Assembly: GCF_001748385.1 (NCBI RefSeq)
Contig: NZ_BCLI01000005.1
Span: 62,001-126,000, forward strand
Length of the DNA stretch: 64,000 bases
Direction of reading: 5' to 3'
DNA from: Vulcanisaeta thermophila
Lineage (GTDB): Archaea; Thermoproteota; Thermoprotei; Thermoproteales; Thermocladiaceae
In this document: one piece after another, positions 4,453 to 7,683 of the stretch
Position numbering within the stretch: position 1 is the first letter of the stretch
Layout: each line of letters begins with the position of its first letter
The notes under the pieces: model-generated
What the model was told of the DNA's origin: nothing
Databases searched by the model: none
What the model saw: only the letters and a program-made list of their open reading frames with translations
Position numbers and translations under genes: made by a program

Positions 4453-5574
4453 GTGGGCTTTAACAATAAGTCCATCGAGGAGTTGGGCCTTGGAGTAATG
4501 AGGAGGGCGTACTACGTACTGGGCATAAGCATTGTTGGCCTATTCTTAGTGATGATTAATTGGGTCGGCCTATCCTCAGTGATGTACTACATAATGACCA
4601 TAAAGAGGGTGGTGCTCGGCATGACCTACTACGTAATACCCATGGCCACGGCAATGGTGGGCTTCGCCATAACCCAACTACCCTCAACCATGCTCCTAAA
4701 CAGGGCAGGCAACAGGGTACCCATATTCCTAGGACTACTACTGAACGGTGTCTCGATGATGGTAACCACAGACAATTACTACACGGCATTACTCCTAAGA
4801 TTCCTCGCTGGAATGAGCATGGGCCTCTACCTACTACCCACAATGCTACTCCTCGTGGGCTGGTGGAGCATTAGGAACATGACCAGGTGGGTTCAGGTAC
4901 TCTACCTAATGGCATTCACAACAATATTCGTGGCATCAATACCACTGGCCAAGCCCCTGAGTGCCTTCTCGCTATACCTGGGACTGGCCTCACTGGCACT
5001 ATCACCAATCCTACTATTCACCGCGAAGGACGCCGTAATAATAAAGAAGGCGCCCATCATGGCAGTCATGAACAACCCAGACGTACTACTAATGGGCATA
5101 GCCTTCTCAGCACCCTGGGGATTCTACCTAAGCCTTGCCTCAGCATTGAACGAGACCACGAACACGGCACTGGCACTAACAACACCACTACTAGTAATAC
5201 CGGTACTGTACAGGTTCAGACACGCACTTAGGCTAAACAGGATCAAGGCACTACACTACTCAACCCTAGCCCTAGGAGCACTAACACCAGCACTAATATA
5301 CGCACCAACGAGGGAACTCACCCTAGCAATCCTGGGCCTAATCTTCGCACTAATAACACTACTAATACTGGGCGTAATAAACGAGTTGGTGAACCCACTA
5401 CTCACAGTACAAACCATAAGCTACCTACTCACAATATCATCAATACTGGGATCCATGATAGGCATAGCCATGGGCTACACAGTGGACCACCTGGGACCAG
5501 CGGGTTGGGTAATCACTGGAGGTTTGATAATGGCCTCATCAATAATCTACAGGGTTTTGAAAATCACTCTTTAA
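4453..5574 (+). CDS. Major facilitator superfamily permease
   Basis: The 373-residue product is almost wholly hydrophobic, with 11-12 predicted membrane spans in two halves. It shows an MFS-like loop 2-3 motif (NRAGNRVPIFLGLLL, compare GxxxDRxGRR) and a repeat of this area in the second half (MGYTVDHLGPAGWVI near the C-terminus). The substrate cannot be told from sequence. The GTG start is supported by the TATA box. The last 11 bases overlap the convergent CBS gene, so the two mRNAs are complementary at their 3' ends. Confidence 0.75.
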   Translation: MGFNNKSIEELGLGVMRRAYYVLGISIVGLFLVMINWVGLSSVMYYIMTIKRVVLGMTYYVIPMATAMVGFAITQLPSTMLLNRAGNRVPIFLGLLLNGVSMMVTTDNYYTALLLRFLAGMSMGLYLLPTMLLLVGWWSIRNMTRWVQVLYLMAFTTIFVASIPLAKPLSAFSLYLGLASLALSPILLFTAKDAVIIKKAPIMAVMNNPDVLLMGIAFSAPWGFYLSLASALNETTNTALALTTPLLVIPVLYRFRHALRLNRIKALHYSTLALGALTPALIYAPTRELTLAILGLIFALITLLILGVINELVNPLLTVQTISYLLTISSILGSMIGIAMGYTVDHLGPAGWVITGGLIMASSIIYRVLKITL

Positions 5575-5992: not shown

Positions 5993-6165
5993 AGACCCCC
6001 ATACACACCCTATCCTAACTGATTAATAAGCTTTATCATGTATAGAACAAGTACATCTAAATACACAACCATAATAACATGCGTAAAACTACAACATACA
6101 ATAAATCACCCCTAAATAGCAAATATAGAAACAAAAGAACTAAAAACAAGACACCCAGGAAAAGA

Positions 6166-6226
6166 CACAGTGATGAATAGGGACCTCGCCGGCAGAGGAA
6201 TGACGAATTTGCCGAGTGCTGACCAC
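6166..6226 (+). ncRNA. Candidate C/D-box sRNA (2'-O-methylation guide)
   Basis: A C box gtgatga (6170-6176) is followed by a C'-like atgacga (6200-6206) and a D box ctga (6219-6222), about 53 nt from C to D, the usual size of archaeal C/D sRNAs. The D' box is degenerate (cgg or ccgg near 6189-6192). The 12-nt guide between C' and D, atttgccgagtg, is complementary to cactcggcaaat. From memory, this contains the conserved 23S rRNA stretch ACTCGGCAAA before the GCCCCGTAAC loop in crenarchaea. The N+5 rule would place methylation on the C of ACTC. A TATA-like aactaaaaac lies about 25 bases before the C box. It sits 8 bases before the end of the convergent PaREP1 pseudogene. Confidence 0.6.
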
Positions 6227-6230
6227 CCAC

Positions 6231-6652
6231 TCAACCCTTAACTACCCTCCACGCCTCCTCAACCATCCTCCTAACATAAGGTCCCCTCTCCCTCACATCC
6301 TCACCATCAAACCTCGCCTCATGAAAACCCCACACGTGCAACACCCACGCCGCATCCCAAGCCTCCCTAAACCACCTACCAACCCTACCCGAGATCTGCA
6401 ACACCGCCTTTTCAAGCTCCACCACAGACCATCCACCCTTATCCCTAACCCTCTTAAGTACGTCCAAGTTATAATGCATGGCCAGGGCCTTAACCACCTC
6501 CTCAGCCGCCCTATAAAGCCTCTCACAGGCCTGAACAGGATCCCCCTCAACCAACGCCTCACCCTCACTGAGGAACCTCAACGCCAATTCCAGATGCGCC
6601 TCAACCCCTCATCAGGGTCCAGTCGAGCCTCCTTTAACAACGCCTCAACCAC
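6231..6652 (-). pseudogene. PaREP1 family (HEPN-like) protein, frameshifted
   Basis: The downstream 118-residue frame has the PaREP1 core: LELALRFLSEGEAL, GDPVQACERLYRAAEEVVKALA, GWSVVELEKAV, and a C-terminal half with WDAAWVLHVWGFHEARFD. An upstream frame starting at a GTG (6650-6652) encodes VEALLKEARLDPDEG, which is the normal PaREP1 N-terminus. The two join if one G is added to the GGGG run on the minus strand (6605-6608). With that correction the protein is about 140 residues, as usual. PaREP1 proteins are helical, HEPN-related and multicopy in Thermoproteales; their role is not settled. As read, the gene is broken, although a TTG inside could start a shorter product. Confidence 0.7.
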
Positions 6653-6909
6653 CCAGACCCAACATTAACGCCTCCCTTTAATACCCTTACCCACAACCCA
6701 CACATTTAACACCCACCAACCACCTTCAACACCACCCCCAATAAACAACTAAACACAACAGATCATTCAAAGTTACTTTTCATAATACACGTAGCAATGA
6801 TAAACCCACGTGAGCCCCTTTTAAACCAACCTGAATTAAGTAAGACAGGAACACAACCAACTCATTAGGAGAAGCCCAGAACCCCTAGGTAAGGGATACG
6901 GCAAGGTTA
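6653..6909. other. Intergenic, nothing recognised
   Basis: A G-poor stretch between the PaREP1 pseudogene and the TnpB-like frame. I see no conserved gene or RNA. It may hold the eroded 5' third of the TnpB gene, but no translated frame matches that family. Confidence 0.4.
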
Positions 6910-7683
6910 GTGAGAAGGGAAAACACGGAGATAGGGTGCAAGAACAACGAGCCAATGCTCTGCGGCATTGTCGTGAACACCATCTATAGGGAGTGGCGTG
7001 GGGTTGATGTTTATGATGCGTTGATGATTGTGGATGGTGACATCATCTACATGAGGATTCCAATACCAAGTGAGGAAGAGGACAACCCACACAATAGAGT
7101 GAGGGTGTGGGTAACACTGTGGACAGCCACCAAGCTGATTAAGCTGCTCAGGCGATTACACAGCATTCACGGCATACAAGGCATAATTGGCGTGGAAGAC
7201 TTGAGAGGCATGGCCAAAAAGAGGAGGCTGCACGTATTAAAGTATAGCCGCGTATTTAATTTACTAACGGCCGTTAAGAAACCGCTGGCAACCATGATGA
7301 TCCCATCGCTAATGGATGCAAAATACGATTTTGAGGCCTCGCTGTTCAGGGGACACGGAGGCCACTACTACGTAATTCAAATTGACCCGCGAGGCACAAG
7401 CAGCATATGCGGCCTCTGTGCCATAAGGGAAGCAAGGTTCCAACCAGTCGTGGAATTAAAAAACAGAAAAGTAAAATGCCCAAAGCACGGAATAATGGAC
7501 AGAGACCACAATGCCTCACTGAACATAATGCGTTCAGCGTACATCGCGTACATGGCACTCAAGGATTACATCGCCAACCCGGCTCGGGGTGGGGAAAGGC
7601 CCTGGGCACCCAGCCCGGGGCCCACCCACCCCGGGCTGGGGAGAAGAATGATGAAGAAGGAGGTGCAGACGCCCCAGATGTAG
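6910..7683 (+). CDS. TnpB-like protein (IS200/IS605 OrfB), N-terminally truncated
   Basis: The 257 residues correspond to the C-terminal nuclease half of TnpB, the RNA-guided endonuclease carried by IS200/IS605 elements. RuvC-II is seen as GVEDLRGM (Glu 96), the zinc ribbon as CGLC (167-170) with C190 and H193, and RuvC-III as MDRDHNASLNI (197-207). The N-terminal RNA- and target-binding domains are absent; a TAG lies 22 bases before the GTG start. The expected RuvC-I aspartate (GIDxN) appears as GIVVN near residue 21, so a catalytic Asp seems lost. The C-terminal tail (from about 222) is Gly/Pro-rich and overlaps GC-rich hairpins. It is either a dying element or a nuclease-dead derivative. 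No TnpA is present. Confidence 0.65.
   Translation: MRRENTEIGCKNNEPMLCGIVVNTIYREWRGVDVYDALMIVDGDIIYMRIPIPSEEEDNPHNRVRVWVTLWTATKLIKLLRRLHSIHGIQGIIGVEDLRGMAKKRRLHVLKYSRVFNLLTAVKKPLATMMIPSLMDAKYDFEASLFRGHGGHYYVIQIDPRGTSSICGLCAIREARFQPVVELKNRKVKCPKHGIMDRDHNASLNIMRSAYIAYMALKDYIANPARGGERPWAPSPGPTHPGLGRRMMKKEVQTPQM
7609..7640. repeat. 12-bp inverted repeat at the end of the TnpB frame
   Basis: The arms cccagcccgggg (7609-7620) and ccccgggctggg (7629-7640) are perfect complements with an 8-nt loop. The right arm recurs at 7820-7831. Strong GC hairpins over the 3' end of tnpB are where the omega-RNA scaffold and the IS right end are found in this family. Confidence 0.7.

What the first reader, a model, noticed from the sequence alone, without database searches (positions are those of the whole stretch)
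6166..6226. Unannotated C/D-box sRNA with a guide to 23S rRNA
C box gtgatga, C' atgacga and D ctga frame a 12-nt guide complementary to cactcggcaaat. I recall ACTCGGCAAA as a conserved 23S rRNA element in crenarchaea. The target C would follow from the N+5 rule. The D' box is weak, so it may use one guide only.
Basis: partly seen in the sequence, partly recalled or inferred. Interest (0 to 1): 0.6.

Follow-up and report, generated by a model that had tools for sequence, protein, structure and literature searches.

The report
Dual-guide C/D-box rRNA methylation sRNA
This is a real small guide RNA of a hot-spring archaeon (Vulcanisaeta) that most likely steers methylation of, and holds together, two spots in the large ribosomal RNA; it belongs to a well-known class, and a counterpart was probably already published for Thermoproteus tenax, so it is largely ordinary.

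Summary
The + strand at 6170-6222 reads C box GTGATGA, C' ATGACGA, D CTGA, and the guide at 6207-6217 makes 11 contiguous Watson-Crick pairs with 23S rRNA 1834-1844 of the same genome. The N+5 target is C1837 (E. coli 1672, helix 61). 'One guide only' is unlikely: the upstream guide pairs 9 nt with 23S 2123-2131 (helix 71/72), and both guides are invariant in all 12 genomes of the genus while spacers and flanks drift. The family occurs across the order (Pyrobaculum, Thermoproteus, Caldivirga-type). The Thermoproteus tenax copy fits the published, RNA-seq-detected 'Tte sR51' by its predicted targets, though its deposited sequence could not be checked. Vulcanisaeta has about 4 extra nt between D' guide and C', leaving two candidate D' boxes and making D'-directed methylation uncertain. 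Side finding: Acidilobaceae/Desulfurococcaceae MAGs carry the same two guide modules in swapped order (circular permutation), and Thermofilum-type sRNAs couple the helix-61 guide to another helix-71 guide, suggesting that bridging helices 61 and 71 is selected. Verdict: new member of a known kind, modest interest.

The parts
6140..6147 (+). weak TATA-like element CTAAAAAC, start 30 nt upstream of the C box
   Evidence: Vulcanisaeta relatives mostly have CTTTTAAAG/CTTATAAG-type boxes at about the same spacing; the window copy is the divergent one
6170..6176 (+). C box GTGATGA
   Evidence: TGATGA invariant in 12 genomes
6177..6189 (+). D' guide ATAGGGACCTCGC; 6180-6188 pairs 9 nt Watson-Crick with 23S 2123-2131 (CGAGGTCCC)
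   Evidence: TAGGGACCTCG invariant in 12 genomes
6190..6193 (+). D' box candidate 1 (position homologous to CTGA/CCGA of Pyrobaculum), here CGGC; N+5 target would be 23S G2126
   Evidence: no Vulcanisaeta copy keeps GA here
6193..6196 (+). D' box candidate 2, CAGA, 3 nt before C'; N+5 would be C2123 at the edge of the duplex
   Evidence: GA kept in 11 of 12 Vulcanisaeta copies, same 3-nt distance to C' as in Pyrobaculum
6200..6206 (+). C' box ATGACGA
   Evidence: TGACGA invariant in 12 genomes
6207..6218 (+). D guide ATTTGCCGAGTG; 6207-6217 pairs 11 nt with 23S 1834-1844; G6214 (N+5) pairs with C1837 = E. coli 1672, helix 61
6219..6222 (+). D box CTGA
   Evidence: invariant in 12 genomes

Best explanation
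A roughly 55-60-nt archaeal C/D-box sRNA. L7Ae, Nop5 and fibrillarin assemble on its C/D and C'/D' motifs. The D guide anneals to helix 61 of 23S rRNA and fibrillarin methylates the 2'-O of C1837 (fifth nucleotide upstream of the D box). The upstream guide anneals to 23S 2123-2131 (helix 71/72, about 290 nt away), so the sRNP also bridges two parts of domain IV during assembly. Whether the D' side still methylates (G2126 by the homologous D' position, C2123 by the shifted CAGA box) or now only anneals is open. Shown: boxes, pairing with own rRNA, conservation, presence of fibrillarin and Nop5 genes. Inferred: expression, RNP assembly, methylation, bridging.
For: Boxes and unique pattern. 11-nt and 9-nt pairing with own 23S. 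12/12 genomes of the genus, with both guides and boxes invariant while spacer and flanks vary. 36/45 genomes of the order match the guide+D-box pattern with at most one mismatch, against 4 matches in all of the reversed control pattern. Pyrobaculum-, Thermoproteus- and Caldivirga-type copies carry both guides. Synteny beside a CBS-domain gene in 10 of 11 relatives, with the TATA spacing conserved. Fibrillarin E=1e-101 and Nop E=3e-70 in the same genome. The T. tenax copy fits the targets of published Tte sR51 (PMC4644070 Table 3).
Against: No RNA reads or methylation data for this organism. The D' box is degenerate and D' pairing is 9 nt. The window copy has a weaker TATA-like box than its relatives. 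Single-strand folding is not better than shuffles (z -0.43), which is uninformative for this RNA class.
Confidence: 0.93

Rival explanations
1. Single-guide sRNA: only the D guide works; the D' guide is a relic because the D' box has decayed in Vulcanisaeta.
For: No GA at the homologous D' position in any of 12 copies; insertion of about 4 nt between guide and C'.
Against: The D' guide core TAGGGACCTCG is invariant in 12 genomes while adjacent spacer bases vary; a GA-bearing D'-like tetramer is kept just before C' in 11 of 12.
Confidence: 0.2
2. The D' side acts only as a chaperone/anchor that holds helix 71/72 near helix 61, without methylating.
For: Conserved pairing with a misplaced or degenerate D' box; recurrence of helix 61 / helix 71 guide coupling in other architectures; chaperone role proposed for distant dual guides, including Tte sR51 (PMC4644070).
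Against: No direct test; archaeal D' boxes tolerate deviation (general knowledge).
Confidence: 0.35
3. Chance box motifs with fortuitous rRNA complementarity; no gene.
For: About 5% of random 12-mers in the window reach 9 or more pairs with the rRNA, so the D' match alone would be weak.
Against: 11-nt D match, order-wide conservation, synteny, family-wide dual guides.
Confidence: 0.01

Closest known systems
Thermoproteus tenax sR51 (Dennis et al. 2015, PMC4644070, Table 3)
   Different: D' box in T. tenax is CGGA directly after a 12-nt guide; Vulcanisaeta has about 4 more nt before C' and a degenerate D' box. Identity with the published sequence was not checked (supplement not available).
Pyrobaculum C/D box sRNA families (Lui et al. 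2018; cited in PMC7994747, paper itself not held)
   Same: Both guides and all boxes conserved in Pyrobaculum-type genomes; presumably among the published families, not verified.
   Different: Pyrobaculum D' boxes are CTGA/CCGA, and the D' guide GTGGGNGACCTCG carries one extra base relative to the 23S complement GTGGGGACCTCG.
Rfam archaeal C/D families sR35 (RF01123), sR23 (RF01138), snoPyro_CD (RF00095)
   Same: Same class of RNA; weak alignment over the boxes (11-12 bits).
   Different: Far below gathering scores of 45-60; different guides.

Membership tests
Archaeal C/D-box methylation guide sRNA | C (RUGAUGA) and D (CUGA) boxes near the ends | tested here: met
   GTGATGA 6170-6176, CTGA 6219-6222; invariant in 12 genomes apart from R
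Archaeal C/D-box methylation guide sRNA | Internal C' and D' boxes | tested here: inconclusive
   C' ATGACGA met; D' degenerate, two candidates CGGC and CAGA
Archaeal C/D-box methylation guide sRNA | Guide directly upstream of D complementary to rRNA or tRNA (9 or more nt) with a pair at N+5 | tested here: met
   11 contiguous pairs, G6214-C1837 at N+5
Archaeal C/D-box methylation guide sRNA | Second guide upstream of D' complementary to rRNA with a defined N+5 position | tested here: inconclusive
   9 pairs with 23S 2123-2131; N+5 depends on which D' box is used
Archaeal C/D-box methylation guide sRNA | Fibrillarin and Nop5 encoded in the genome | tested here: met
   (L7Ae not searched)
Archaeal C/D-box methylation guide sRNA | Expressed RNA bound by L7Ae/Nop5/fibrillarin; target methylated | not testable with these tools
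   no reads or modification data
Orthologue of T. tenax sR51 | Same predicted targets (D: C1947; D': G2249 and G1980 in the published alignment numbering) | tested here: met
   Base identities, 33-nt spacing and offset to E. coli 1983 agree for the T. tenax locus L079
Orthologue of T. tenax sR51 | Published sR51 sequence identical to L079 | not testable with these tools

The most novel reading that the evidence does not exclude
Helix 61 and helix 71/72 of 23S rRNA are bridged by a dual-guide C/D sRNA whose two guides have stayed coupled through a circular permutation between archaeal orders and have been re-paired in Thermofilum-type archaea. The selected function would then be the bridge (assembly chaperoning) rather than any particular methylated base; in Vulcanisaeta the D' arm would have become mainly an annealing arm.
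Probability: 0.3. Interest if true: 0.5.

Novelty: new member of a known kind. Interest (0 to 1): 0.3.

Why it matters
It adds a well-supported guide RNA to Vulcanisaeta, for which my literature search found no C/D-box sRNA study and Rfam has no matching model, and it predicts a testable 2'-O-methyl C at 23S C1837. The persistence of the same guide pair across orders, including a swapped-order version, offers a natural test of whether dual-guide sRNAs are kept for methylation or for bringing distant rRNA segments together.

Tried and rejected
Single-strand folding of the RNA: no better than shuffles, as expected for C/D sRNAs. Rfam at permissive threshold: only sub-threshold C/D families. Sigma-70 scan is not applicable to archaea. 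Non-rRNA targets of the D guide: the 11-mer occurs nowhere else in the genome; shorter or wobble-containing tRNA or mRNA targets were not excluded. Alternative rRNA sites for the D' guide (23S 1369, 1951, 2936 regions) pair less well or with G-U and are not where the T. tenax and Pyrobaculum-type homologues point. Lui et al. 2018 is not held. Protein-coding reading of the + strand: ORF 6216-6668 starts inside the conserved guide/D box and lies antisense to a PaREP1 gene; judged spurious without further test.

Full report
OBSERVATION. The + strand at 6170-6222 reads GTGATGA / ATAGGGACCTCGC / CGGCAGAGGA / ATGACGA / ATTTGCCGAGTG / CTGA. A pattern scan for C - C' - guide - D finds this one place in the window on both strands. 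The genome's single 23S gene was located in contig C1 and the 16S next to it. The D guide pairs 11 nt, all Watson-Crick, with 23S 1834-1844. Random 12-mers of the window reach 11 or more contiguous pairs with the rRNA at a rate of 0.19%. ACTCGGCAAAT is found only twice in 2.02 Mb, in the 23S and (reverse complement) in this RNA.

TARGETS. By the N+5 rule G6214 points to C1837, which aligns with E. coli 1672 in helix 61. The upstream guide however pairs 9 nt with 23S 2123-2131 CGAGGTCCC in helix 71/72, and the same is true of the sRNA and 23S of five other Vulcanisaeta genomes. Helices 61 and 68-71 are reported hotspots of predicted archaeal rRNA methylation (PMC4644070). Helix names here follow my reading of the E. 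coli numbering.

CONSERVATION. All 12 genomes of the genus have the sRNA once. The genus is Vulcanisaeta: named contigs of identical length appear. In the alignment the C, C' and D boxes and both guide cores are invariant, whereas spacer and flanks vary. Ten of 11 relatives keep the CBS-domain gene divergently upstream, and all 11 keep the homologue of the membrane-protein gene 4453-5574 beyond it. Relatives have a clear archaeal TATA box about 30 nt upstream; the window copy has CTAAAAAC at that spacing, so its promoter is weaker by sequence. 36 of 45 genomes of the order match the guide plus D box with at most one mismatch (a few of these matches are protein-coding coincidences or lack a recognisable C box, visible). 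Copies with both guides are seen in Pyrobaculum-, Thermoproteus- and Caldivirga-type genera. Thermocladium-type copies (L039, L040, L131) keep only the D guide with a different D' guide.

KNOWN RELATIVE. The T. tenax genome (contig 1,841,542 bases) has one copy, L079. Dennis et al. list Tte sR51 with D target C1947 and D' targets G2249 and G1980 (PMC4644070 Table 3). In T. tenax the D target is C1828; 33 nt further lies a G, and the D' N+5 site corresponds to E. coli 1983. The paper's own anchor A2178 = E. coli A1912 gives 2249 for E. coli 1983. The identity is therefore very likely but not verified by sequence. The sRNA kind, and probably this family, is thus already known and RNA-seq-supported in a relative.

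WHAT DIFFERS. Pyrobaculum-type, Caldivirga-type and T. tenax copies have CTGA, CCGA or CGGA straight after the D' guide and 3 nt before C'. All Vulcanisaeta copies have about 4 extra nt. The position after the guide then reads CTGC, CGTC, CGTT or CGGC (never GA), while a tetramer 3 nt (4 in one copy) before C' reads CAGA, CGGA, TAGA or TTGA in 11 of 12 copies. If the latter is the structural D' box, the N+5 position slides from G2126 to C2123 at the very edge of the duplex, or D' methylation is lost while annealing remains. I cannot decide this by sequence. Outside Vulcanisaeta the D' guide GTGGGNGACCTCG equals the full 12-nt complement of the site (GTGGGGACCTCG) plus one extra base; this is read directly.

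SIDE FINDING. A scan of named genomes with TGNNGWNTTTGCCGAGTGCTGA gave 48 loci, nearly all archaeal, including Thermoproteales of this architecture. In Acidilobaceae and Desulfurococcaceae MAGs L130, L142, L144 and L148 the helix-61 guide sits in the D' slot and the helix-71 guide in the D slot. After rotation L130, L144 and L142 align with Pyrobaculum-type copies at 42-44 of 51 positions (L148 37-38), against 29-35 in native order, and L130/L144 even share the box variants. A circular permutation fits better than convergence for those. Archaeal C/D sRNAs are known to circularise (PMC7994747), and a rearrangement of this sort was described within Methanopyrus (PMC4644070). In Thermofilum-type and some other MAGs (L128, L090, L137, L169) the helix-61 guide is coupled to a different guide, CCATTCATG-like, matching 23S 2109-2117, also helix 71. 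Many other lineages couple it to unrelated guides, so the coupling is recurrent, not universal, and the loci are not phylogenetically independent.

CONCLUSION. Real, conserved, dual-guide C/D-box sRNA; new member of a known kind. Expression and methylation remain to be measured.

Noticed in passing
L130, L142, L144, L148: Circularly permuted homologues: the same helix-61 and helix-71 guide modules in swapped order in Acidilobaceae/Desulfurococcaceae MAGs.
   Followed up: partly
L128, L090, L137, L169: Helix-61 guide in the D' slot coupled to a CCATTCATG-like guide for 23S 2109-2117, also helix 71.
   Followed up: partly
6231-6587 (-): PaREP1/PaREP8 family gene (Pfam E=2e-29) ending 8 nt from the sRNA D box, convergent; the one search made found no homologue beside the sRNA in relatives.
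   Followed up: no
6910-7683 (+): 257-aa ORF with a Cas12f1-like/TnpB C-terminal domain, shorter than a typical TnpB; possibly a transposon remnant.
   Followed up: no
L084 (G028:C1:2060990-2061200): A second copy in one Pyrobaculum-type genome, 3.7 kb from the intact one, with both guides but no recognisable C box: looks like a decaying duplicate.
   Followed up: no
6190-6194 and 6210-6214: In the window copy CGGCA near D' is complementary to TGCCG in the D guide and forms part of the predicted fold; may be incidental.
   Followed up: no
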